Below, in pieces: positions 27,554-41,673 of a stretch of 53,126 nucleotides of DNA (its first letter is position 1; every line of letters begins with the position of its first letter). This stretch comes from Bradyrhizobium sp. (lineage in GTDB: Bacteria; Pseudomonadota; Alphaproteobacteria; Rhizobiales; Xanthobacteraceae). The stretch is from positions 1 to 53,126 of the forward strand of contig NZ_JAGWUA010000006.1 in assembly GCF_028868675.1 (NCBI RefSeq), read 5' to 3'. The notes beneath the pieces are model-generated. The model had not been told where the DNA came from. It made no database searches and was given only the letters and a program-made list of their open reading frames with translations. The position numbers were made by a program, and so were the translations under genes.

Positions 27554-27976
27554 GTTGATTTTGCAGACTTTCCCGCGGGGCGATGCTGGGGCTGAGCTCT
27601 CGGGCCTGATCTATAGCCTATCCGCCCATTGTCAAACAGGCGGCGGGCCGGATTCGAAACACGCGGTTCAACCCCATGCACAGTGGGCAAGCATCTGACG
27701 CGACACGAATTTCTTTTTTGTCGAAATATGACTTGACTCGTCGGGCAAATCAGGGGCATGATGGCACATTCCACAAATCCGAATAACGACCGCGGCGCGC
27801 GATGAGTCCGCAACCGACGACGCGCTCACGCAATGGGACCGGGATGGTTTTGGCGCCTTCGCCACCGCCGACGGTACGGGTTCCATCGACAAATCGGATG
27901 ATTCGTCGCCCTCGCGAATATTGCCTTGGCAGGCCAACCCCTGTGGTTTTTTGACGAAGATCAGAGGAGATGCGCT

Positions 27977-28645
27977 TTGAGGATCCCATCCATCCTGGGC
28001 AGTGTTGTTCTGGCTGTCGCTTTGAGCGTCGGTGTCGCGCAGGCTTCCACCGTCAACGTCGCACTCTCAAGCGACGGGGCAAGCTTCGTGAGCGCAACAT
28101 CCCAGATCTTCTCCAGCAGTTCACCGTGCTGCGGCGGTTTCGTGAACGGTGGCTTGACCACGGCGCAAGACAATCTGCTGACGACGACCCCGATCCCGTG
28201 GCTTGCCAACGGCGACGAGCGCTTCATCTTCGACGATAACGACAGCGTCGCCTCTCTCATCATCAGGTTGGGCAGCATCAGCACGCTCGTCAGCTTCGGT
28301 GCCACCTTCAGCGCGACCGATCGAATTCCAGGGCTGTTCTCGGTAGCCACGTCGCTGGATGGCGTTCACTTCACGTCCGTCGGAACGTTGCTCAACCCGA
28401 ATTCATCGTTCAGCGGCGGCAATTCCACCCTCGTCACGACGGCGCCTCTCTCGGCATTGTACGTCGAATACTCTTTCGGCTCTGCTACTGGCACCAACGC
28501 GTACGGCGCCGGCGTCAGCGAAGTTTTCGCCTCTGTCGCAGGGGTCCCCGAGCCCTCGACCTGGGCAATGATGATGCTCGGCTTCTGCGGCCTCGGCTTC
28601 ATGGCGTATCGGCGGAAGAAGCAGATCGTGGCCGCACTCGCCTGA
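27977..28645 (+). CDS. PEP-CTERM sorting domain-containing secreted protein
   Basis: Signal peptide after a likely TTG start preceded by AGAGGAG; C-terminal [27 protein letters not shown]. Confidence 0.88.
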
Positions 28646-28666: not shown

Positions 28667-29782
28667 TCACGCCTTCGACGCGGCCGGGCGGGCGTCCGGC
28701 TGCGCCGCGCCGGCGCGGTCGACGAGCAGATCGGTCAGGCCCGCGCCCAGCCACATGCCGCCGAGCACGAGCCAGGCCGTCAGCGCGAACACGGAGGCGC
28801 CGGTGACGCCGGCGCCCACCGCGCAGCCGCCGGCGAGCATGGCGCCAAAGCCCATCAGCACCGCACCCAACAGGTAGCGGCGCATGCCGAGGCCGTCGGA
28901 AAATCCCTCGAGCTTCAGTTCGTGCGCGAGCGCCGCGGCGACGAACGAGCCGAGGAACACGCCGGGAATGATGCCGAGGTCGAAGCCGAGCCTGATCTGC
29001 GAGGAGTTGAGCACCAGCATCAGCAATTCGGCCGACGGGCCGGAAAAGGTCAGGCTCTTCAGCGTCACCGGGGCGAAGGACGACTGCGACAGCTGATAGG
29101 TGAAGAGCCAGCCGGCGACGACGGCCGCTCCCGTCGCGAGCGCCGACAGGATCAGGCGCCGCGGCAGGCGGCTGCGAAAGGCGAAGGCGAGGCCCGCGAT
29201 CAGCCACAGGCCGCCGAAGGCGAGCTTCTCCGGCGTGCCGCCGCCGAACACCGCCATGATGTCGCGCGACGGTCCGCCGTCGACCAGCCACAGATTGGTC
29301 AGCCATTCGCGCGCGGGCGACAGCAGGCCGTGCCAGGCGGCCTGCGCCGTCACCGCGAAGACGAGACCGGACAAGAGCGCGCGCAGGTTTCCGTTGGCCG
29401 ACAGCACGAGCAGCCGGCTCGCGCAGCCGCGGGCAAGGATCATGCCGCAGCCGAACATCACGCCGCCGATCATGGCGCCGGAAATGCTGCCCTGCTGCGC
29501 GAGCTGGCGCGCCTCGGAGACATCCAGCCAGCGGATCGCGACGAGCGCCTGCGTGCCGACGAGCGCCGCGGCGAAGGTCAGCAGCCAGACCGCAAGGCGC
29601 GGCCCGCCCTCGCCGCGCGAGAATTCGACCGCGGCGGCGCGCAGGCAGAACCGGCTCCTCTGGGCGAAGAAGCCGAAGAGGCCGCCGACCACGAGGCCGC
29701 CGAGCCAGGAGAGCCGGTCTTCACCCAGGAGATCGATGACCGATGTCAGCACGGCGCGCTCAGTTTTCGTCAGAGCCGGCAA
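28667..29782 (-). CDS. YeeE/YedE family sulfur-compound transporter
   Basis: FGCGMILARGCASRLLVLSANGNLRALLSGL and GFGAMLAGGCAVGAGVTGAS paired Gly/Cys motifs; multi-TM. Confidence 0.88.
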   Translation of the reverse strand: MPALTKTERAVLTSVIDLLGEDRLSWLGGLVVGGLFGFFAQRSRFCLRAAAVEFSRGEGGPRLAVWLLTFAAALVGTQALVAIRWLDVSEARQLAQQGSISGAMIGGVMFGCGMILARGCASRLLVLSANGNLRALLSGLVFAVTAQAAWHGLLSPAREWLTNLWLVDGGPSRDIMAVFGGGTPEKLAFGGLWLIAGLAFAFRSRLPRRLILSALATGAAVVAGWLFTYQLSQSSFAPVTLKSLTFSGPSAELLMLVLNSSQIRLGFDLGIIPGVFLGSFVAAALAHELKLEGFSDGLGMRRYLLGAVLMGFGAMLAGGCAVGAGVTGASVFALTAWLVLGGMWLGAGLTDLLVDRAGAAQPDARPAASKA

Positions 29783-29835
29783 GTCTAGCGACGTCGCGAT
29801 TCCGCCCCATGAGCCAGATCAAGGCCGCGCACGGC

Positions 29836-30279
29836 TCAGGGCCGCAAGTACGCAAAGCCCTGCTGCTGCAGCTCCGCAATCCGCACCACGCCGCCCTTCT
29901 CGGCCACCACGAAGCCGGGGATGAGGTCGTCGAGCTTGACGCCCTGCGCCTTCATGGTGTTGGCGCAGGCGTCGAAGCCGACGCCTTCCTGCGCCAGCTT
30001 CTGCATCGCCGCCACGGTGTGATCCTGGGCGGCGAGCGCATGGAACGCACGCAGCGCCGGGCCGTGAACGACGAGCCTGATGTCGGCCTTGCCGGGTCCG
30101 CCGACGCCATCGACGTGGTTCTGCAGATTGCCGAGCACGAAGACGACACGATCGGCATCCGCGAGGTGATAGACGACGCGCTGGCGCGCGGCCGGTTCGG
30201 CGGCCGCAGCGGCGCCGCCTGCGCCGAACGCCCCCAACAGTCCGGCAAGGCCCGCGCGAAGCATGGATCGACGCTGCAT
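29836..30279 (-). CDS. DsrE family protein with signal sequence (paralog 2)
   Basis: MQRRSMLRAGLAGLLGAFGAGGAAAAAEP leader; VVYHLADADRVVFVLGNLQNHVDGV; GVGFDACANTMKAQGV conserved Cys. Confidence 0.82.
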   Translation of the reverse strand: MQRRSMLRAGLAGLLGAFGAGGAAAAAEPAARQRVVYHLADADRVVFVLGNLQNHVDGVGGPGKADIRLVVHGPALRAFHALAAQDHTVAAMQKLAQEGVGFDACANTMKAQGVKLDDLIPGFVVAEKGGVVRIAELQQQGFAYLRP

Positions 30280-30287
30280 GTCTCCTC

Positions 30288-31190
30288 CTATCGTGTCTGC
30301 TTGATGAATTCGGCGATGCGATCGGCCGCGTCCTCGGCAAAGAGGTCGCGGAAGAAATGGTCGGCGTCCTCGATGGTGTCGAGCTGCACCCGGCCGCCGC
30401 TCGCGCCCGCGAGCTTCGCGAAGGACGTCGCCACATCAGGCACGACCGTGTCCTTCGTTCCCGCCAGCACGAGCACGGGCATCTTCAGTTGCGCCACCAG
30501 CGCCACGGTGTCCTGGCCGGGATCGGCCGCGTAGAACGAGGCAAAGGCGCGCGCCGTCACCGTGGCGTCGCGGCAGTAGATGAAACCGGGCACGGTCATC
30601 CATTCGCCGCCGCGCCCGGCCGCAACGGCCCTGGTCGCCTGCTCCAGCAACGGCTCGAGCGGCCTGCCGTAGGTTGCGGCATAGGACGCGCGAAGGCTCG
30701 CTTCGGCCGTGGCGGTGACCGGCGCAAGCAGTACGGCGGCCGCGACCGCGCCGCCGTTCGCCGCCAGATAACGCGCTACCTGGTTGCCGCCGCGCGAATG
30801 GCCGAAGGCGTAGATGCGCCGCGACAGGCCCTTTGCGTGTCGCACCCAGGCATCGATTTCGGCTGCGGCGTCATCGGTGACGTAGTCGTGGCGGGTCGCG
30901 CAGTCGTACATGCCCTTGCGGCGGTCCTGCCCGAGCGCCAGCGTGTGGGCGAGCGAGGCGATGCCGCGCTCGGCCAGCGCCTGCGCCAGCGTCCGGATCA
31001 CGTCCATGTCCTTGTGCGCCAGCGTGCCGTGGGTCATCACGACCAGCGGCGTGTCGGCCTGCATCGACGCCGGCGTGCGCAGCGTGGCGAGAACCGTGCG
31101 GCCGCCGACCGACAGCTCGATGTCCTGCTCGGCAGCGGCAGCCGTTCCGGCCAACGCGAGCAGGATCGAAAGTCCCACCAACCATCGCAT
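30288..31190 (-). CDS. Secreted alpha/beta hydrolase (dienelactone hydrolase-like)
   Basis: Signal peptide; VMTHGTLAHKD; FGHSRGGNQVARYLAANGG nucleophile elbow; VLVLAGTKDTVVP; EDADHFF. Confidence 0.85.
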   Translation of the reverse strand: MRWLVGLSILLALAGTAAAAEQDIELSVGGRTVLATLRTPASMQADTPLVVMTHGTLAHKDMDVIRTLAQALAERGIASLAHTLALGQDRRKGMYDCATRHDYVTDDAAAEIDAWVRHAKGLSRRIYAFGHSRGGNQVARYLAANGGAVAAAVLLAPVTATAEASLRASYAATYGRPLEPLLEQATRAVAAGRGGEWMTVPGFIYCRDATVTARAFASFYAADPGQDTVALVAQLKMPVLVLAGTKDTVVPDVATSFAKLAGASGGRVQLDTIEDADHFFRDLFAEDAADRIAEFIKQTR

Positions 31191-31204
31191 CAGTCGCCAT
31201 CTCC

Positions 31205-31669
31205 CTAGGGACGAACGATCGTCCAGTGCTTTTCCGCAAATTCCATCAGGGCGGCGACGCCGACCTGGGTGACGTTGACGCCCTCGATCAGCGGCGGCCG
31301 CCTGCCCTCCTTCACGCCAAGCGTCTCCAGCGTATTGCCGCAGGCGATGAAGCTCACATTGGGCATCGATTTCAGGAAATTGGTCATGCGCTCCTTCACC
31401 GGGGAGCGGTCGTCGAGCAGCATGTCGAGGCCGCCGTTGAAGGCGATCACGACGATCTCGACGTCCTCGCCCTGCCCCGAATAGTGCCGCGAGACGTTGG
31501 CCGCGACATCGAGCACGGCGCGCATCTTGGCGGGCTCGTCATCGCTGATCTGCAGCACCAGGCGGTGCGGATCGGCGGCGAAGGCCGGGATCGCGAACGC
31601 CGCGACGAGCAAGCCGGCGGCCGCACAAGCCCTAAGCAATGCGCGGCGGCTTGCCCCGCCGCGGTTCAC
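31205..31669 (-). CDS. DsrE family protein with signal sequence (paralog 1)
   Basis: GTG start overlapping soxD stop; signal peptide; HRLVLQISDDEPAKMRAVLDVAANV; VSFIACGNTLETLGV conserved Cys. Confidence 0.82.
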   Translation of the reverse strand: MNRGGASRRALLRACAAAGLLVAAFAIPAFAADPHRLVLQISDDEPAKMRAVLDVAANVSRHYSGQGEDVEIVVIAFNGGLDMLLDDRSPVKERMTNFLKSMPNVSFIACGNTLETLGVKEGRRPPLIEGVNVTQVGVAALMEFAEKHWTIVRP

Positions 31670-32367
31670 TCCACGCCCCGCGATTTCTTGTCCTTGTCTT
31701 CCGGCGTCACGTCGATGGCGGCGGCACGGGCGGTGATCTTCACCGGCGCGATGCAATTCTTCATGCAGGGATCCTTCTGCCAGAACGATTTCTCCGCGGC
31801 GGCGCGGTCGTCCATGACGAAACCCTGCTCGTTCGGCATCTTGATCGCGGCGAGATTCTTGTTGTTCAGCTCGAAATCCTGGTCGGTGATGACGTCGTTG
31901 AGATAGAGGACGTAGGCGACCAGCGCGTAATATTCGTCGACCTTGAAGGCCTCCGCGTTGCCGTAGGGCATGGCGTGGCGGACGTAGTCGAACACGGTCG
32001 AGGCATAGGGCCAGTAGGAGCCGACCGTCTTCACCGGGTTGTCGGAGGTCAGCGAGCCCTTGCCGCCGGCGAGCACGGGCCAGCGGCCGTTGCCCTCGCC
32101 GAACTCGCCGTGGCAGGATGCACAATTGTCCATGAACAGCTTTTCGCCCTGCGCGACCGTGCCCTTGCCCTCGGGCAGGCCCTGGCCGTCCGGACGCACG
32201 TCGATGTCCCAGCCGCGGATCTCCTCCGCCGTCGGGGCGCGGCCGATGTCGTAGCGCGGAGCGGACTTTGCCTCCGTTTTGGCGTCCGGCTTGCTCTGCG
32301 CCAGCGCCGGGGAGGCGATCGCGCCGGCGAGCAGCGCCGCGGCGACGAGCTTAGGCAACTTCGACAT
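31666..32367 (-). CDS. soxD: SoxD-like c-type cytochrome, sulfur dehydrogenase subunit
   Basis: Follows soxC; signal peptide; single CASCH heme motif; WPYASTVFDYVRHAMPYGNAEAFKVDEYYALVAYVLYLNDVI. Confidence 0.88.
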   Translation of the reverse strand: MSKLPKLVAAALLAGAIASPALAQSKPDAKTEAKSAPRYDIGRAPTAEEIRGWDIDVRPDGQGLPEGKGTVAQGEKLFMDNCASCHGEFGEGNGRWPVLAGGKGSLTSDNPVKTVGSYWPYASTVFDYVRHAMPYGNAEAFKVDEYYALVAYVLYLNDVITDQDFELNNKNLAAIKMPNEQGFVMDDRAAAEKSFWQKDPCMKNCIAPVKITARAAAIDVTPEDKDKKSRGVE

Positions 32368-33628
32368 TCTCGACCTCACCATTGGCCTGCACGTGCCAGG
32401 TCTGGATGCCATTGTTGTGATAGATGGAATTGACGCCGCGGATCTTGCGGAGCTCGGCCTTGCTCGGCTGCACGTAGCCGGTCTCGTCCTGCACGCGCGA
32501 TTGCAGCAGGAGCGGCTCGCCATTCCAGTCGAACTCGTAGTAGAAGCGCGCCAGCGCCTTGTCGAGCACGGGCCCGTCGAGCCGCGCCGGCCGCCAGTTG
32601 CGGCCGCCGTCGAGCGAGACGTCGACGCGCTTGACCTTGCCGTTGCCGCTCCAGGCGAGCCCCGAGATGATGGTAAAGCCCTTGCCGTGCCTGATCGGCG
32701 CCTGCGGACTCGGGCTCGTGATCACGGATTTGGCGTCCATCGCCCAGGTGAAGCGGCGCGCCTTTCCGCTCGGCAGGAGGTCGGTGTATTTCGAGGTCTC
32801 CTCGCGGGTATGCCAGGGCTGGTCGCCGACCTTGATGCGGCGCAGCCACTTGACCCAGAGATTGCCCTGCCAGCCCGGAACGACCAGCCGCATCGGATAG
32901 CCCTGCTCGGGATAGAGCGCCTCGCCGTTCATCTTGTAGGCGATGATGCAGTCGTCGAGCGCCTTCTCGATCGGCAGGCTGCGATCCATCGCGGCGGCGT
33001 CCGCGCCTTCGACCAGCAGCCACTTGCCGTTGGTCTTGACGCCGGCCTCCTCGAGCAGCGTGCGCAGCGACACGCCGGTGTACTGCACGCAATGGATCAT
33101 GCCGTGGGTGAACTGGCAGCCGTTGAGCTGGGCGCCGCGCCATTCCATGCCGGAATTGGCCGCGCACTCCATGAAGTGGATCCGGTTGACGCGCGGATAG
33201 CGCTTCAGCTCCTCCAGCGTCAGGATCAGCGGACGCTCGACCAGGCCATGGATCATCAGGCGATGGTCGGCCGGGTCGATCTCGGCGATGCCGCCGTGAT
33301 GGCGCTCGAAGCAGAGGCCGTTGGGCGTGATGATGCCTTCGAGCTCGTGCAGCGGCGTGAAGCTGACGGACGATTCGCGCGAGGCGGTCAGCCATTCGAC
33401 GTCGCGGCGGACGACGTCCTTCTCGAATTTCGAGGGCTTGCCGTAGGGCCGCACCGCGACGCCCTCGCCGAGCGCCCTGGTCCATTCCGGCACGTTGGGC
33501 GGCTGGTTCGCGGGATTGCCGCCGGCCCCCGCCGGCCTTGCCAGCATCGTCGCGGCAACGCCTGCGCCTGCGGCGAGGAAGTTGCGGCGGGACTGGCCTT
33601 GCTCGTCCATCTTCGACATCGCTCTCAC
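32351..33628 (-). CDS. soxC: SoxC, molybdopterin sulfite dehydrogenase-family subunit
   Basis: TAT leader RRNFLAAGAGVAATMLA; sulfite oxidase family HFMECAANSGMEW; VPGWQGNLWVKWLRRI. Confidence 0.93.
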   Translation of the reverse strand: MRAMSKMDEQGQSRRNFLAAGAGVAATMLARPAGAGGNPANQPPNVPEWTRALGEGVAVRPYGKPSKFEKDVVRRDVEWLTASRESSVSFTPLHELEGIITPNGLCFERHHGGIAEIDPADHRLMIHGLVERPLILTLEELKRYPRVNRIHFMECAANSGMEWRGAQLNGCQFTHGMIHCVQYTGVSLRTLLEEAGVKTNGKWLLVEGADAAAMDRSLPIEKALDDCIIAYKMNGEALYPEQGYPMRLVVPGWQGNLWVKWLRRIKVGDQPWHTREETSKYTDLLPSGKARRFTWAMDAKSVITSPSPQAPIRHGKGFTIISGLAWSGNGKVKRVDVSLDGGRNWRPARLDGPVLDKALARFYYEFDWNGEPLLLQSRVQDETGYVQPSKAELRKIRGVNSIYHNNGIQTWHVQANGEVENVEVA

Positions 33629-35316
33629 GCTCCGGTCACCTTGACGGCGCGGTTCGGCTCGAGCCGAACCGTCTTCTGCCGCGTCAAATAGTTCGCAACG
33701 ACGTCCCAGATCGGCGGCCCCTCCGTGCCCTCGTTGACGCTGGCCCAGCCGGCCACCTGGTATTCCCTGTTCGGGTCGATCGGCGCGCCGGTCCTGGCGA
33801 GCTGCATGTCGGAGATGCGGCTGCCTTGCGGCCTGGCGATGTCGATCGCGTAGGACAGCCCGCCGATCCGCACCATGTCGCCGCCCTGCTGATAGTAGGG
33901 ATCGACGTTGAAGAGGTTGTCGGCGACGTCCTCGATGATCTCCTTCAGCCGTGCGCCCGTCATGCCCATGCGGTAGACGGCCGGGTAGGTGATGGCGGTG
34001 GCGTTGGTGACGTCCTCGAAGGTGATGTCCTGGCCCGGCAGCACGCTGGTGCCCCAGCGGAAGCCCGGCGACAGCGCGATCTCGGCATCGCGCTCGGTCA
34101 GCAGCGCCTGGCAGATCAGATCGTCGAAGGTGCCGTTGAAATTGCCGCGCCGGTAGAGCAGCGAGTCGGTCTTGCCGAGCACGCGCGAGAGATCGGCAGC
34201 AAATGGCTTGCGCACCTCGGCGATCTTCGCGGCCATCTCCGCATCCGGCGTGATGATGTCGGAGAACAGCGGGATCAGCTTGTACCGGAACGCCTTGACC
34301 TCGCCGTCGCGGACGTCGAGATCGAGCCGGGACACGAATTTTCCGGACGAGCCCGACGCGATCAGCAGCGTCTTGCCGACCTTGACAGCCTCGGGCAGCG
34401 CGTCATGGGTATGGCCGGTCAGGATGACGTCGATGCCCCTGACGCGGGAGGCCAGCTTGCGGTCGACGTCAAAACCGTTGTGCGACAGCAGCACGACGAG
34501 CTGCGCGCCGCCCTTGCGCGCCTTGTCGACCTGCGCCTGGACGTCCTCCTCGCGCACGCCGAACGACCAGTTCGGGATCATCCAGCGCGGATTGGCGACC
34601 GGCGTATAGGGAAAGGCCTGACCGAGCACCGCGATCTTGACGCCGCCGCGCTCGATCGTGGTGGAGGCCTCGAACGCCGCCTCGTTCCATTCGGTGTCGC
34701 GGATGTTGAGGCCAAGGAAGGGGAAGCCGAGACCTTCGATCGCCTGCTTGACGCGCTCGGTGCCGTAGGTGAATTCCCAGTGGCCGGTCATGGCGTCGGG
34801 CTTGAGCAGGGCCATGCAGTCGATCATGTCCTGGCCGCGCGTCTTCAGCGACGACCACGAGCCCTGCCAGGTGTCGCCGCCGTCGAGCAGCGCGACCTTG
34901 TCGCCGCGCTCGGCGCGGATCGCCTTGATCACGGTGGCGGCGCGATCGAGCCCGCCGATCTTGCCGTAGGTTTTTGCCAGCGCCTCGAAATCCTCAGAGG
35001 TCAGTGCGTAGGCCGCCGACGAGCCCGGCGCGACGCCGAAGCGGGCGAGGAACTCCTTCGCGGTGACGTGCGGCGGCAGCCCCTTGGCCTCGCCGACGCC
35101 GAGATTGGTCGAGGGTTCGCGGAAATAGAGCGGCATCAGCTGGCCGTGGATGTCGGTGACATGCACCAGCGTGACGTTGCCGAGCGGCTCGAAGGCCAGC
35201 AATTCCTTCTCGCTCAGGCGCTGCTGGGCGAAGGCCCGCGACAGGCCGGCACCGGGGCCGGCCGTGAGCGCGGCGGTCGCCGCGGCAACCTGAATGAATT
35301 CACGGCGCGAGATCAT
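33625..35316 (-). CDS. soxB: SoxB thiosulfohydrolase
   Basis: LVHVTDIHGQLMPLYFREPS, LLDGGDTWQGSW, GHWEFTYG, ILTGHTHDALPE; TAT-like leader. Confidence 0.95.
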   Translation of the reverse strand: MISRREFIQVAAATAALTAGPGAGLSRAFAQQRLSEKELLAFEPLGNVTLVHVTDIHGQLMPLYFREPSTNLGVGEAKGLPPHVTAKEFLARFGVAPGSSAAYALTSEDFEALAKTYGKIGGLDRAATVIKAIRAERGDKVALLDGGDTWQGSWSSLKTRGQDMIDCMALLKPDAMTGHWEFTYGTERVKQAIEGLGFPFLGLNIRDTEWNEAAFEASTTIERGGVKIAVLGQAFPYTPVANPRWMIPNWSFGVREEDVQAQVDKARKGGAQLVVLLSHNGFDVDRKLASRVRGIDVILTGHTHDALPEAVKVGKTLLIASGSSGKFVSRLDLDVRDGEVKAFRYKLIPLFSDIITPDAEMAAKIAEVRKPFAADLSRVLGKTDSLLYRRGNFNGTFDDLICQALLTERDAEIALSPGFRWGTSVLPGQDITFEDVTNATAITYPAVYRMGMTGARLKEIIEDVADNLFNVDPYYQQGGDMVRIGGLSYAIDIARPQGSRISDMQLARTGAPIDPNREYQVAGWASVNEGTEGPPIWDVVANYLTRQKTVRLEPNRAVKVTGA

Positions 35317-35341: not shown

Positions 35342-36166
35342 TCAGTTGCGCACGGAGGGCGTCTCGACCGGCAGCCCGATGCCGCGCCAGGCGACGTAGA
35401 CCTCGAGCGCGAGGAACTCGTCCGACAGCGGCTTGTAGGGCTCGGCGCGCACGTCGAACATGCAGCCCTCGAAGCGTTCGTGCAGCGGCACCAGGCGCTG
35501 GTCGCGCAAACGGTAGGTCGGGAAGCCGTTGGTCTGGCCCTGGCTCAGGAAGTCGGCGCGCATGAACTTGCCGTTGTTGCGCTCGTGGCAGGAGGCGCAG
35601 GCGAGATCGAGCTGGCCGACCCGGGTATAGTAGATCTGCTTGCCGCGCTCGAACCACGGCGACATCGGCCCGTCGGTCTTCACCGCCACCGGCATGCCGC
35701 GCGACTGGAAGCGCACGAAGGCGGTCATGTCGGTCAGCGCCTGCGACTTGAACGCCCAGGGCTCCGCCTTCATCTTCTCGGTGCGGCAGATGTTGATGCG
35801 CTGCTCGAGATTGACCGGCTTCTTCAGCCTGTCGTCCCATTTGGGCATGGCGGCGCCGACGCCCTTCATGGTCGTCTCCGCCTCGCCGTGGCAGCTCGCG
35901 CAGGACTTGCCCTCGCTGCCCTCGACCTTCTTCCAGGCGTCGGCGGCGCGCTCCACCGCGAGGAAGCCCGGATTCTCCAGGTCGTCGTCCTGCAGCGCGC
36001 GCGTCTCCTTGCTGCGGAACTCGTAGCCGGAGATGATGGTCTTGAAGACGTGGCCGGGCGGCGCAGGAATGCCCTTGCGTTCGGCCTCCTGCGCAGAAAT
36101 GCCCGCGCCGGTCAGGACGATTGCCGCCGCGGCGACGGCGAACAGGCCAACGTAACGAGACGTCAT
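35342..36166 (-). CDS. soxA: SoxA, diheme sulfur-oxidizing cytochrome subunit
   Basis: Two CASCH motifs; FEGCMFDVRAEPY active-site Cys region. Confidence 0.94.
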   Translation of the reverse strand: MTSRYVGLFAVAAAAIVLTGAGISAQEAERKGIPAPPGHVFKTIISGYEFRSKETRALQDDDLENPGFLAVERAADAWKKVEGSEGKSCASCHGEAETTMKGVGAAMPKWDDRLKKPVNLEQRINICRTEKMKAEPWAFKSQALTDMTAFVRFQSRGMPVAVKTDGPMSPWFERGKQIYYTRVGQLDLACASCHERNNGKFMRADFLSQGQTNGFPTYRLRDQRLVPLHERFEGCMFDVRAEPYKPLSDEFLALEVYVAWRGIGLPVETPSVRN

Positions 36167-36195
36167 CCGACCACTCCCTCGAAGCCCCAGCGGCA

Positions 36196-36522
36196 TCATG
36201 CCTTGAGCGCGATCTTCTCTTCGGCCGTGATCACCGTGCCGTCATCGTCGGTCCAGGAGAACTTGAACGTTCCGGCCTCATCCACCTTCGCATTGAACTG
36301 GATGTAGGGATTGGCGGAGATCGCGGGCTCCAGCGCGCAGGCGAACAGCGGTTTGCCGTTGAACTCGCAGGCGAACTTGTTGATGATCTTGCGCGGAATG
36401 GCCTTGCCCTGCGCGTCCTTGCGCTGGCCGGATTCCATGACGTGCGAGACCAGGGTCTTGATCTGGATGACGTCGCCCTTGGCCGCTTCCTTGGGAAGCT
36501 TGATGCGCGGTTTGTCTGCCAT
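36196..36522 (-). CDS. soxZ: SoxZ thiosulfate oxidation carrier chaperone
   Basis: MADKPRIKLPKEAAKGDVIQIKTLVSHVMESGQRKD...FSWTDDDG. Confidence 0.95.
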   Translation of the reverse strand: MADKPRIKLPKEAAKGDVIQIKTLVSHVMESGQRKDAQGKAIPRKIINKFACEFNGKPLFACALEPAISANPYIQFNAKVDEAGTFKFSWTDDDGTVITAEEKIALKA

Positions 36523-36542
36523 GATGTTTCTCCTCTCGCTTC

Positions 36543-36995
36543 CTAGCCGCCGCAGCCGCCGATGGTGACCTTCACGGTCTTCTGCTCCGTGAACAGGCTG
36601 CCGTCGCTCATCTTCGCGATCGCCACCACGTTCTGGGTGGCCGCGAGCCGGATCCGGATCGAGGCCTCGGCCTTGCCCGAGAGCGGCGTGAACATCAGCG
36701 TCGCGACGCCGGCGTTCGGGTTGCCGTCGGCGAGGATCATGACCTCCTTGACGTAGGCCTGCTCCGTCATCGGGCTCTCGACGCTGAGCGACAGCGGCAC
36801 TGTGTTGCCGTTCTCCGCGATCTCCGGCAGGTCGAGCGAGATCTTGCCCTTCACCGGCGCCTTGCCGCCGGTGAATTTCTCGATCCACTTGGCGGCGTCG
36901 TTGGTGACTTGCGCATCGGCCGCCATCGGCATCAGGGTCAGCATGACGAAGCCGCCCCCGAGCGCGAATGCCTGCCGTCGATTGATGGCTTTCAT
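36543..36995 (-). CDS. soxY: SoxY sulfur carrier
   Basis: C-terminal GGCGG sulfur-binding motif; NGNTVPLSLSVESPMT; leader. Confidence 0.95.
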   Translation of the reverse strand: MKAINRRQAFALGGGFVMLTLMPMAADAQVTNDAAKWIEKFTGGKAPVKGKISLDLPEIAENGNTVPLSLSVESPMTEQAYVKEVMILADGNPNAGVATLMFTPLSGKAEASIRIRLAATQNVVAIAKMSDGSLFTEQKTVKVTIGGCGG

Positions 36996-37012
36996 TCCTG
37001 TCCTCCTCGCTG

Positions 37013-37456
37013 TCAGTTCAGCGTCTTGAGATAAGCGACGACGTCCTCGACCTGCGCGGCCGTCAGGATCGTCTTGCCGACGAATTCGGGGCGCACCCGG
37101 CTCAAGCCGTCGTTCCGGTAGAACGCGGGCATCACGGTGTCGGCGAAGATGCGCTTGGGGTCGGCGACGATGAGGCGAAGCTGCGCCTCGCTGTAGCGGC
37201 CGGCGACGCCGTCGAGCGACGGGCCGAACTCGCCGTGGAATTCCTCGGACTTCAGGCTGGTGACCTGGTGGCAGGCCAGGCAATTGCCGAGCGTGCGCGT
37301 CAGGAACACCTTCTTGCCGGCGCCCGCATTGCCGGGCGCGCCGGTCAGCGATTTCGGCAGGGAGTCGTTGACGACATCGAGCTTGATCGGCTCCTGCGCG
37401 GAGGCGGCTGCCGCCCACAGACACAATGCCAACGCGGCGACGCGCGAGCGCTGCAT
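37013..37456 (-). CDS. soxX: SoxX monoheme cytochrome
   Basis: RTLGNCLACHQVTSLKSEEFHGEFGPSLDGVAGRYSE. Confidence 0.94.
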   Translation of the reverse strand: MQRSRVAALALCLWAAAASAQEPIKLDVVNDSLPKSLTGAPGNAGAGKKVFLTRTLGNCLACHQVTSLKSEEFHGEFGPSLDGVAGRYSEAQLRLIVADPKRIFADTVMPAFYRNDGLSRVRPEFVGKTILTAAQVEDVVAYLKTLN

Positions 37457-38236: not shown

Positions 38237-38959
38237 TTGCGCTGCATCATCGCTCTGCTGGCATGGCTCGTCGCAACGGGAGCCGGCCTCGGCGCCGAGG
38301 CCGGAAAGCCCGTTGATTTCCCGTCCGCCGTCCAGTCGGTCATGGCCAATCTGCGCACGGCGGCAAGCTACGCCCGCACCGGCAACATCGCGCTCGCCCA
38401 GATGGAGACCGAGGAGGCGCAGACCGCGTGGCAGGCGCTGCAAGACGGCGCAACTGCCGCTCCCCTGCCCCCTTACGCGCCGGCGGCGCTGCAGGATTTT
38501 CTCGCCAGGGGCCGCGCGCAGCTCAAGGGCATAAATGACGCGCTCGGCGGCGGCGACAACGTCGCGGCGGGCCGCGACCTCTTCGCGGTCCGCAAATCGT
38601 TCCATGATCTCCGGCGCAAATCGGGACTCTACGATCTCGGCGACTGCGTCTTCGAGATCGCGCCCGCGATGGAGAGGCTGCGCGCGGCTGCGACGGGCTT
38701 TGGCGAGCAGCCGGCCGGCGCACGCGCCGAAGACACCGTTTCCGCCGCCGCCGCGTTTCGCGACCGGCTGCAGCGCTGCAACGATTGGGCGAGCGCCGAG
38801 ATCTCCGCGCAGCCCGAATTCCGCCGGCTGATCGACGGCGCGACCGCCAGCGCAGGCGAGATCGCGCATGCGGCGATGGCCGGCGACGCCCCGCTGGTAC
38901 ATCGCTATCTGATCGAGCTGCAGTCCTACGCGCAGTTGCTCGACTTCCGCTTCGGCTAG
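38237..38959 (+). CDS. Secreted helical protein of unknown function in the sox locus
   Basis: Signal peptide MRCIIALLAWLVATGAGLGAEA; predicted alpha-helical, two internal Cys, no CxxCH. Confidence 0.75.
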   Translation: MRCIIALLAWLVATGAGLGAEAGKPVDFPSAVQSVMANLRTAASYARTGNIALAQMETEEAQTAWQALQDGATAAPLPPYAPAALQDFLARGRAQLKGINDALGGGDNVAAGRDLFAVRKSFHDLRRKSGLYDLGDCVFEIAPAMERLRAAATGFGEQPAGARAEDTVSAAAAFRDRLQRCNDWASAEISAQPEFRRLIDGATASAGEIAHAAMAGDAPLVHRYLIELQSYAQLLDFRFG

Positions 38960-40175: not shown

Positions 40176-40526
40176 ATGTCACTGCCGAAACTGAAAGAGA
40201 TCGAAGGCTCCGCCGAGCTCGAGCAGATGATCGAGAAGGCGCGCGAGGCCAGCGACATGCTGAAGGCGCTCTCGCACGAATCGCGCCTGCTGCTGCTCTG
40301 CATCCTCGCCGAGGGCGAGAAGTCGGTGACCGAGCTCGAGCAGTTCCTGGGCGAACGGCAGTCGACGGTCTCGCAGCAGCTCGCGCGGCTGCGGCTCGAT
40401 CGCCTCGTCACGACGCGCCGCGACGGCAAGGCGATCTATTACAGCCTCGCCAACGAAGAGGTGCGCAAGATCCTGACCGCCATCTACGACGTGTTCTGCG
40501 AGCCGGTCCGTCGCCGCCGCAGGTGA
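40176..40526 (+). CDS. soxR: SoxR-like ArsR-family transcriptional regulator
   Basis: LKALSHESRLLLLCILAEGEKSVTELEQFLGERQSTVSQQLARLRLDRLVTTRRDGKAIYYSL; adjacent to soxS. Confidence 0.88.
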   Translation: MSLPKLKEIEGSAELEQMIEKAREASDMLKALSHESRLLLLCILAEGEKSVTELEQFLGERQSTVSQQLARLRLDRLVTTRRDGKAIYYSLANEEVRKILTAIYDVFCEPVRRRRR

Positions 40527-40599: not shown

Positions 40600-41673
40600 A
40601 TGCTGAGTCCTTCGACCATCGCGTTTGCGTGCGGGCTTACCGCCGGCGCCCTGCTCGGCGTCGCCGGCCGGGCCGGCCGATTCTGCACGCTTGCGATGCT
40701 CGAGGATGCGTTCTTCGGATCGGACTTTCGCCGCCTGAAATCCTTCGCACTGGCCGCGGCGGTGGCGCTGCTGGCAACGCAGGCGCTGGCCCGGTTCGGC
40801 ATCGTCGACCTGTCGCGGTCGATCTATCTGACGCCGTCGATCGGGCTCGGCGGCGCCGTCGTCGGCGGGCTGATGTTCGGCGTCGGCATGGCGCTGGTGG
40901 GCACCTGCGGCTTCGGCACGCTGGTGCGCATCGGCGGCGGAGACTTGCGCGCGATCGTCGTCTTCCTCGTGCTCGGTATCTCGGCGCTGGCGACCATGCG
41001 CGGCATCACCGGAATGCTGCGCGTGCTGCTGATCGAGCCGCTGTCGCTGCGGCTGCCCGAAGGCACCAACCAGACGCTGACGTCGCTGCTCGGCCCCGGT
41101 TTCGGCGCGGCCCTCGCCATCTCCATCGCCGCCGCACTGGCGTGGTGGGCGCTCGCCGACGGCAAGCTGATCCGCTCGCCGAGGCTGTTCGCCTCCGGCC
41201 TTGCGGTCGGCGCGGCGATCGCGTTCGGCTGGTTCGCCACCGGCTGGCTTGCGGACGACGAGTTCGATCCGGTCCGCGTCTCGTCGCTGAGCTTCGTCGC
41301 CCCGCTCGGCGACGCCATCCTCTATATCGCCACCTTCTCCGGCGCGCGGCTGAATTTCGGCATCGGCTCGGTCGCCGGCGTCGTTGCCGGCTCGCTTGCC
41401 TCAGCCATGCTCGCACGCGGCTTCCGCTGGGAGGCCTGCGACGACGCGCGCGAACTGAAGCGCCACATGACCGGTGCGCTGCTGATGGGCATCGGCGGCA
41501 TCATGTCGATGGGATGCACCATCGGACAGGGTCTGTCCGCGTTCTCCACCCTCGCGGTGTCGGCCCCGATCGCGATGCTCTCGATCGCCTGCGGCGCGCG
41601 GCTCGGCCTCGAATTCACCATGACCGGCGAATGGCTGCCGGCCGTGCGCCGGCTGTTCGGGGCTTCGACGTAG
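40600..41673 (+). CDS. YeeE/YedE family transporter, SoxT-like
   Basis: GVGMALVGTCGFGTLVRIGGGDLRAIVVF; GIGGIMSMGCTIGQGLSAFSTLA; downstream of soxSR. Confidence 0.87.
   Translation: MLSPSTIAFACGLTAGALLGVAGRAGRFCTLAMLEDAFFGSDFRRLKSFALAAAVALLATQALARFGIVDLSRSIYLTPSIGLGGAVVGGLMFGVGMALVGTCGFGTLVRIGGGDLRAIVVFLVLGISALATMRGITGMLRVLLIEPLSLRLPEGTNQTLTSLLGPGFGAALAISIAAALAWWALADGKLIRSPRLFASGLAVGAAIAFGWFATGWLADDEFDPVRVSSLSFVAPLGDAILYIATFSGARLNFGIGSVAGVVAGSLASAMLARGFRWEACDDARELKRHMTGALLMGIGGIMSMGCTIGQGLSAFSTLAVSAPIAMLSIACGARLGLEFTMTGEWLPAVRRLFGAST

What the first reader, a model, noticed from the sequence alone, without database searches (positions are those of the whole stretch)
28667..32367. Sox operon tail: secreted DsrE-like, alpha/beta hydrolase, secreted DsrE-like, YeeE/YedE
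Seen: soxX to soxD continue with essentially no gaps into DsrE-1 (GTGA overlap with soxD), an exported hydrolase (14 nt gap), DsrE-2 (8 nt gap) and a YeeE/YedE gene (about 53 nt gap), all on the minus strand. Both DsrE-like proteins keep a Cys at an equivalent place (FIACGNTL / FDACANTM) and have export signals, whereas classical DsrEFH and TusBCD are cytoplasmic. Inference: a periplasmic persulfide or sulfane-sulfur handling module co-expressed with SoxXYZABCD. The hydrolase has no known role in thiosulfate oxidation and might act on an organosulfur or thioester substrate.
Basis: partly seen in the sequence, partly recalled or inferred. Interest (0 to 1): 0.6.

Follow-up and report, generated by a model that had tools for sequence, protein, structure and literature searches.

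The report
Exported sulfur-carrier and hydrolase sox genes
Behind the genes that let this soil bacterium burn thiosulfate sit two exported sulfur-carrier-like proteins, an exported esterase-like enzyme and a sulfur permease; relatives of these genes recur in thiosulfate-oxidation gene clusters of many other bacteria, which makes them likely but unstudied helpers of that pathway.

Summary
On the minus strand soxXYZABCD runs straight on into an exported DsrE-like gene (4-nt GTGA overlap with soxD), an exported alpha/beta hydrolase (14 nt), a second exported DsrE-like gene (8 nt) and a YeeE/SoxT-type permease (53 nt). The order is conserved in 31 Bradyrhizobium-type loci. Elsewhere the hydrolase sits in sox clusters of at least six other lineages in about nine arrangements; in its tree one clade of 58 rows is sox-linked in 57, an orphan clade is not. 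Exported DsrE genes are also tied to sox: 14 of 37 SoxB genomes against 3 of 334 others, and 21 tandem DsrE pairs in the window's family all lie within about 7 kb of soxB. New here: both DsrE leaders are Tat-like in nearly all Bradyrhizobium orthologs; the hydrolase leader is Sec-like, its triad and two cysteines are invariant, and its fold is nearest feruloyl esterases and lipases. Most likely: periplasmic sulfane-sulfur relay accessories of Sox plus an esterase of unknown substrate. Function is inferred, not shown. A DsrE gene in Sulfitobacter sox clusters is on record (PMC11034169); I found no paper on the hydrolase.

The parts
31666..32367 (-). soxD, c-type cytochrome subunit of SoxCD; last canonical sox gene; ATG start, ends in GTGA shared with the next gene
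   Evidence: translation, Pfam cytochrome c, position after SoxC
31205..31669 (-). DsrE1: exported MTH1491-type DsrE-like protein, 154 aa, Tat-like leader (SRRALLR), invariant Cys110 (Cys109 in P0001 numbering, without the start residue)
30288..31190 (-). alpha/beta hydrolase, 300 aa, Sec-type leader, Ser132-Asp247-His278 triad and Cys97/Cys206 invariant in all 63 named relatives
29836..30279 (-). DsrE2: exported DsrE-like protein, 147 aa, Tat-like leader (QRRSMLR), invariant Cys105
28667..29782 (-). YeeE/YedE (SoxT-like) permease, 371 aa, three cysteines (46, 120, 320) that align with the head copy; alternative GTG start at 29752
32351..33628 (-). soxC
   Evidence: NCBIfam TIGR04555 over cut-off
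33625..35316 (-). soxB
   Evidence: NCBIfam TIGR04486 over cut-off
35342..36199 (-). soxA
   Evidence: NCBIfam TIGR04484 over cut-off
36196..36540 (-). soxZ
   Evidence: NCBIfam TIGR04490 over cut-off
36543..37022 (-). soxY (Tat-type leader, C-terminal GGCGG); stretch as used, exact start not settled
   Evidence: NCBIfam TIGR04488 over cut-off
37013..37456 (-). soxX
   Evidence: NCBIfam TIGR04485 over cut-off
40176..40526 (+). SoxR-like ArsR-family repressor, divergent
   Evidence: NCBIfam HTH_metalloreg over cut-off, BigR below cut-off; synteny
40600..41673 (+). head copy of YeeE/SoxT next to soxR
   Evidence: Pfam Sulf_transp

Best explanation
The tail of this sox operon encodes periplasmic accessories of thiosulfate oxidation. 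DsrE1 and DsrE2 are small single-cysteine DsrE-fold proteins, probably exported folded by Tat, that carry sulfane sulfur as a cysteine persulfide or thiosulfonate on the periplasmic side. They would take it from, or give it to, the SoxYZ carrier (keeping SoxYZ in its sulfane-primed form) and could pass surplus to the SoxT-like YeeE permease for import or signalling. The hydrolase is a secreted serine esterase/thioesterase that serves the same Sox system; the most likely chemistry is hydrolysis of an acyl (thio)ester that would otherwise block or feed the sulfur carriers. Shown here: gene order, export-type leaders, fold, conserved cysteine and triad, and recurrent linkage to sox. Inferred: sulfur carriage, partners and direction of transfer, and everything about the hydrolase substrate.
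For: Operon-like spacing with a conserved 4-nt overlap soxD/DsrE1 in Bradyrhizobium loci. Whole order conserved in 31 named loci. Core sox genes on 53 of 63 named hydrolase loci, including about 22 of the 32 loci outside the Bradyrhizobium group. Tree: clade of 58 with 57 sox-linked, support 99/93, plus separate sox links in Methylocystaceae (L088) and one further family (L113, L146, L150). SoxB+ genomes carry DsrE1 relatives 14/37 vs 3/334, p=4e-13, and the hydrolase 6/37 vs 4/321, p=1e-4. 21 tandem DsrE pairs in the family, all within about 7 kb of soxB; those read have signal-peptide-like leaders. Tat-like leaders in 25/25 DsrE2 orthologs and in all but one of the Nitrobacteraceae DsrE1 listed. 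DsrE fold with TM 0.91 to MTH1491. DsrE3A of Metallosphaera carries thiosulfate on cysteine (PMC4175335); the working Sox carrier is a SoxYZ-S-sulfane adduct (PMC5336275); YeeE-type SoxT proteins import sulfur or signal to SoxR (PMC11582611).
Against: Purified Sox proteins alone carry out full thiosulfate oxidation (stated in PMC5336275), so none of these is required for the core reaction. In the window's family about 66 of 150 genomes hold a close SoxB but only 3 hold the hydrolase, so it is optional. A few Bradyrhizobium strains have a damaged or missing tail gene. Many hydrolase-bearing sox loci hold no DsrE gene. DsrE1 falls under the Pfam cut-off and similarity to TusD is not significant. 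The closest solved structures of the hydrolase act on carboxyl esters, not sulfur compounds.
Confidence: 0.5

Rival explanations
1. The DsrE pair and the tail YeeE form a sensing or supply line: sulfane sulfur made by Sox in the periplasm is handed to YeeE and imported in small amounts to inactivate SoxR or to feed assimilation, while bulk oxidation stays with SoxCD.
For: Complete SoxCD systems need no mass import and their SoxT is proposed to signal to SoxR (PMC11582611). In other family members a tandem DsrE pair lies between two YeeE genes next to soxR (L152, L153). Three cysteines kept in the tail YeeE.
Against: In this locus the head YeeE, not the tail one, sits beside soxR; whether the tail protein is SoxT1 or SoxT2 was not tested.
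Confidence: 0.25
2. The hydrolase supplies substrate: it cleaves an organosulfur ester or thioester in the periplasm and the released thiol or sulfur is oxidised by Sox.
For: Exported serine esterase with intact triad, recurrent in sox loci.
Against: No sulfur-specific homolog among its solved relatives; no transporter or lyase for an organosulfur compound was recognised beside it in the loci read.
Confidence: 0.15
3. Passengers: the tail genes are lineage baggage of Bradyrhizobium sox operons with no function in sulfur oxidation.
For: Scattered losses and frameshifts in some strains; hydrolase absent from most sox-bearing relatives in the family.
Against: Independent linkage to sox in many families and arrangements; strict conservation of active-site residues.
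Confidence: 0.1

Closest known systems
MTH1491 / ST0148-type DsrE-fold proteins (PDB 1l1s, 2pd2)
   Same: Fold (TM 0.91 and 0.83 by target), cysteine motif before NT/NS, and a C-terminal stretch ending in 'YxRP' or similar
   Different: The archaeal proteins start without a leader in the solved chains; here a Tat-like leader is added and the genes sit in a sox operon; 1l1s is recorded as of unknown function
DsrEFH / TusBCD sulfurtransferases
   Same: DsrE-type fold (DsrH 2hy5_C, TM 0.74 by target); single conserved cysteine
   Different: Only two DsrE-type genes, exported, no DsrC/TusE partner in the operon; sequence similarity to TusD not significant
DsrE3A-TusA thiosulfate carriers of Metallosphaera (PMC4175335)
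   Same: DsrE-like protein tied to thiosulfate metabolism; a precedent for thiosulfonate on a DsrE cysteine
   Different: Cytoplasmic, paired with TusA, no Sox system
SoxT1A/SoxT1B of Hyphomicrobium denitrificans (PMC11582611)
   Same: YeeE-type permease in a sox region; two copies per locus; three conserved cysteines
   Different: There partnered with a DsbA-like protein or SoxS/TusA; here the tail copy follows exported DsrE proteins and a hydrolase; SoxT1/SoxT2 clade not tested
YTD cluster (YeeE, TusA, DsrE-like; PMC13047784)
   Same: YeeE plus DsrE-like gene side by side
   Different: YTD is described with TusA and DsrF/H-like partners; here no TusA, and the DsrE proteins carry export leaders
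DsrE ORF between soxB and soxC in Sulfitobacter (PMC11034169)
   Same: DsrE family gene inside a sox cluster
   Different: Only an annotation remark in that paper; no export, pairing or hydrolase described there
Feruloyl/cinnamoyl esterases and monoacylglycerol lipases
   Same: Fold and serine-hydrolase triad
   Different: About 20% identity; sox-linked; two further invariant cysteines
SoxG/SoxH-type metallohydrolases of sox clusters
   Same: Accessory hydrolases in sox clusters; a SoxH-related gene neighbours the hydrolase in L063, L071, L072, L074
   Different: Metallo-beta-lactamase fold; here a serine alpha/beta hydrolase

Membership tests
DsrE/DsrF-like family (PF02635) | score over the Pfam gathering cut-off | tested here: inconclusive
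   DsrE2 32.1 bits (met), DsrE1 16.9 bits (not met) against 22.7
DsrE/DsrF-like family (PF02635) | DsrE fold | tested here: met
   AlphaFold model of DsrE1 pLDDT 91 matches 1l1s TM 0.91, 2pd2 0.83, DsrH 0.74; DsrE2 by sequence only
DsrE/DsrF-like family (PF02635) | conserved sulfur-carrying cysteine | tested here: inconclusive
   Cysteine invariant in the intact relatives aligned; it aligns with MTH1491, but alignment with the TusD Cys is not significant
DsrEFH / TusBCD complex | three DsrE-fold subunits encoded together, cytoplasmic | tested here: not met
   two DsrE-type genes, both with export-type leaders
SoxT (YeeE-type) permeases | full-length YeeE with three conserved cysteines | tested here: met
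   371 aa, Pfam Sulf_transp 166.8 bits, Cys46/120/320 align with head copy Cys29/103/306
SoxT (YeeE-type) permeases | placement in the SoxT1 or SoxT2 clade | not tested
   reference sequences of H. denitrificans and Paracoccus were not at hand
YTD cluster | YeeE with TusA and DsrE-like genes | tested here: not met
   all four tail genes assigned, none is TusA
alpha/beta-hydrolase serine esterases | fold and Ser-Asp-His triad | tested here: met
   Pfam, model pLDDT 89 and Foldseek, S132/D247/H278 in 63 of 63
alpha/beta-hydrolase serine esterases | esterase or thioesterase activity | not testable with these tools
   needs an enzyme assay
Tat-exported proteins | twin-arginine leader | tested here: inconclusive
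   RRxhh pattern in 25 of 25 DsrE2 and nearly all Bradyrhizobium-type DsrE1; no trained predictor was available, and DsrE1 relatives elsewhere look Sec-type

The most novel reading that the evidence does not exclude
Sox systems of Alphaproteobacteria commonly include an unrecognised periplasmic sulfane-sulfur relay built from paired exported DsrE proteins, in some lineages joined by a dedicated serine hydrolase that acts on carrier-bound or acyl-thiol intermediates, a step missing from the current Sox model.
Probability: 0.3. Interest if true: 0.75.

Novelty: new variant of a known kind. Interest (0 to 1): 0.5.

Why it matters
Open questions in the Sox pathway are how SoxYZ is primed with and kept loaded with sulfane sulfur, and how sulfur reaches SoxT permeases and SoxR. 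DsrE proteins placed in the periplasm next to sox genes are natural candidates, and the Bradyrhizobium operon gives a genetically tractable place to test them. The hydrolase would be a new accessory of thiosulfate oxidation with no sulfur-related precedent found here.

Tried and rejected
Rfam scan of the window gave nothing. NCBIfam gives no name for either DsrE or for the hydrolase above cut-off. Literature searches for the hydrolase in sox clusters and for periplasmic DsrE found no description; papers on B. diazoefficiens and Starkeya sox loci do not discuss these genes in the passages read. Aligning DsrE1 with E. coli TusD to prove equivalence of the cysteine failed to reach significance. 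The profile comparison was discarded because the first alignment already held DsrE2 rows; one search replaces it. The idea that the hydrolase family is sox-only was rejected: an orphan clade in marine Rhodospirillales and others has no sox nearby. The idea that DsrE and hydrolase always go together was rejected. An ORF-based count of complete Bradyrhizobium loci (17) is an artefact of ORF overlap filtering; tblastn is the better count.
Full report
What is there. The window belongs to a 5.04-Mb assembly whose nearest hydrolase relatives are Bradyrhizobium. On the minus strand lies a complete sox operon: soxX, soxY, soxZ, soxA, soxB and soxC pass NCBIfam equivalog cut-offs, followed by soxD. A divergent SoxR-like repressor, SoxS-like protein and a first YeeE permease lie upstream. 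No minus-strand terminator-like site interrupts the tail. These are operon-like features; co-transcription itself was not measured.

The proteins. DsrE2 is a clear Pfam DsrE member; DsrE1 is below the cut-off, but both match MTH1491 by sequence, match each other, and the AlphaFold model of DsrE1 (pLDDT 91) matches 1l1s at TM 0.91 and DsrH at 0.74. One cysteine is invariant in the intact relatives aligned. Its equivalence to the TusD/DsrE active cysteine is plausible but not established. The hydrolase is a serine alpha/beta hydrolase (model pLDDT 89) closest in fold to feruloyl/cinnamoyl esterases, lipases and monoacylglycerol lipases. Ser132, Asp247, His278, Cys97 and Cys206 are identical in all 63 named relatives; the motif HGTLAHKD was part of the search pattern, so its invariance is partly by construction, whereas Ser132, Cys206, Asp247 and His278 lie outside both patterns.

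Export. A leader scan shows an RRxhh twin-arginine-like pattern in 25 of 25 DsrE2 orthologs and in all but one of the listed Nitrobacteraceae-type DsrE1 orthologs, while the hydrolase leaders look Sec-type. DsrE1 relatives in other groups have ordinary hydrophobic leaders. No trained predictor was available, so export is predicted and not proven.

Synteny. A scan of named genomes with a hydrolase alignment returned 63 loci. In 31 Bradyrhizobium-type loci the order soxXYZABCD-DsrE1-hydrolase-DsrE2-YeeE is kept; DsrE2 is missing in one and YeeE in another, and a few genes look frameshifted or truncated. Outside that group the hydrolase sits in sox clusters with different neighbours: soxA-hydrolase-DsrE1 (L083, L093, and G107), soxD-soxW-hydrolase-SoxH-like (L063, L071, L072, L074), soxD with or without SoxF, then hydrolase, SoxH-like, soxW and YeeE (Kiloniellaceae, Pelagibius), soxXA-hydrolase-soxF-soxR-soxT (Neomegalonema), soxB-soxV-YeeE-(soxR)-hydrolase without soxCD (L070, L075, L076), a Methylocystaceae arrangement with an exported DsrE and a rhodanese (L088), a soxV/soxW arrangement (L113, L146, L150) and soxD-hydrolase (L145). 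A maximum-likelihood tree of 82 hydrolases has a clade of 58 rows of which 57 are sox-linked (support 99/93); L088 and the L113/L146/L150 group are sox links outside it; an orphan clade is unlinked. Rearranged neighbourhoods in different families argue for a functional link and against simple shared descent of one operon.

Frequencies. In samples of the class, 37 genomes other than the window's carry SoxB; 14 of them also carry a DsrE1 relative, against 3 of about 334 without SoxB, and 6 carry the hydrolase against 4 of about 321. In four of the six the hydrolase lies within about 10 kb of soxB. The samples differ by a few genomes and related genomes are not independent, so the p-values are guides only. 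In the window's family 53 of 90 genomes with SoxB carry a DsrE1 relative against 6 of 60 without. Of 96 DsrE hits 61 lie within 12 kb of a soxB, and all 21 tandem DsrE pairs do, most of them under 430 bp away and the rest at 6-7 kb. The pairs read out have signal-peptide-like leaders. By contrast the hydrolase was found in only 3 of 150 genomes of the family, although about 66 hold a close SoxB. Exported DsrE is therefore a common sox accessory and the hydrolase a rarer one.

How it most likely works. Current work places a SoxYZ-S-sulfane adduct as the working carrier (PMC5336275), shows a DsrE3A protein carrying thiosulfate on cysteine (PMC4175335), and shows YeeE-type SoxT proteins importing sulfur or signalling to SoxR (PMC11582611). 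Putting these together, exported DsrE proteins beside soxCD are best read as sulfane-sulfur carriers on the periplasmic side, either priming or unloading SoxYZ, or presenting sulfur to the permease. The direction is not known. The hydrolase is best read as a secreted esterase/thioesterase in the service of Sox; its substrate is unknown and this is the weakest link. Because purified Sox proteins suffice for thiosulfate oxidation in vitro (stated in PMC5336275), these genes should tune efficiency, substrate range, repair or signalling, and not the core reaction.

Novelty. The parts belong to known families. A DsrE ORF in Sulfitobacter sox clusters is on record (PMC11034169), and B. diazoefficiens sox locus I is described as soxTRSVWXYZABCD with SoxR repression (PMC5748708) without discussion of the tail genes in the text read. 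The pairing and Tat-like export of the DsrE proteins and the sox-linked serine hydrolase appear undescribed in the library searched, which lacks most subscription papers. I rate it a new variant of a known kind.

Noticed in passing
G000 contigs C193:2-1444 and C261:11749-12099 (loci L028, L131): The same genome holds a second, diverged sox set: a SoxB-like gene of 51% identity and, on another contig, an exported DsrE gene next to a SoxB-like fragment.
   Followed up: partly
L151-L154; family survey: Tandem pairs of exported DsrE genes lie directly behind soxB in the second sox locus, or between two YeeE genes next to soxR, in many members of the family.
   Followed up: partly
window 38237-38959 (+): A 240-aa ORF with a signal-peptide-like start on the plus strand between soxV and soxW has no Pfam match yet is found in all Bradyrhizobium-type sox loci whose contig reaches that far.
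   Followed up: no
window 27926-28645 (+): The plus-strand gene just past the operon end has a PEP-CTERM-like C terminus ([26 protein letters not shown]).
   Followed up: no
L042, L040, L043, L048, L049, L053: Some Bradyrhizobium assemblies have a split, truncated or missing tail gene (DsrE1, hydrolase, DsrE2 or YeeE), so the tail may be dispensable or some are sequencing errors.
   Followed up: no
L084 9857-11222: In Neptuniibacter (Gammaproteobacteria) the hydrolase is followed within a few bases by an exported thioredoxin-like protein, with no sox gene on the locus.
   Followed up: no
L083, L093, L121: In the soxA-hydrolase-DsrE1 arrangement DsrE1 is followed by a CusB/HlyD-type efflux gene and (in L083) an RND pump, hinting at a metal-linked island.
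   Followed up: no
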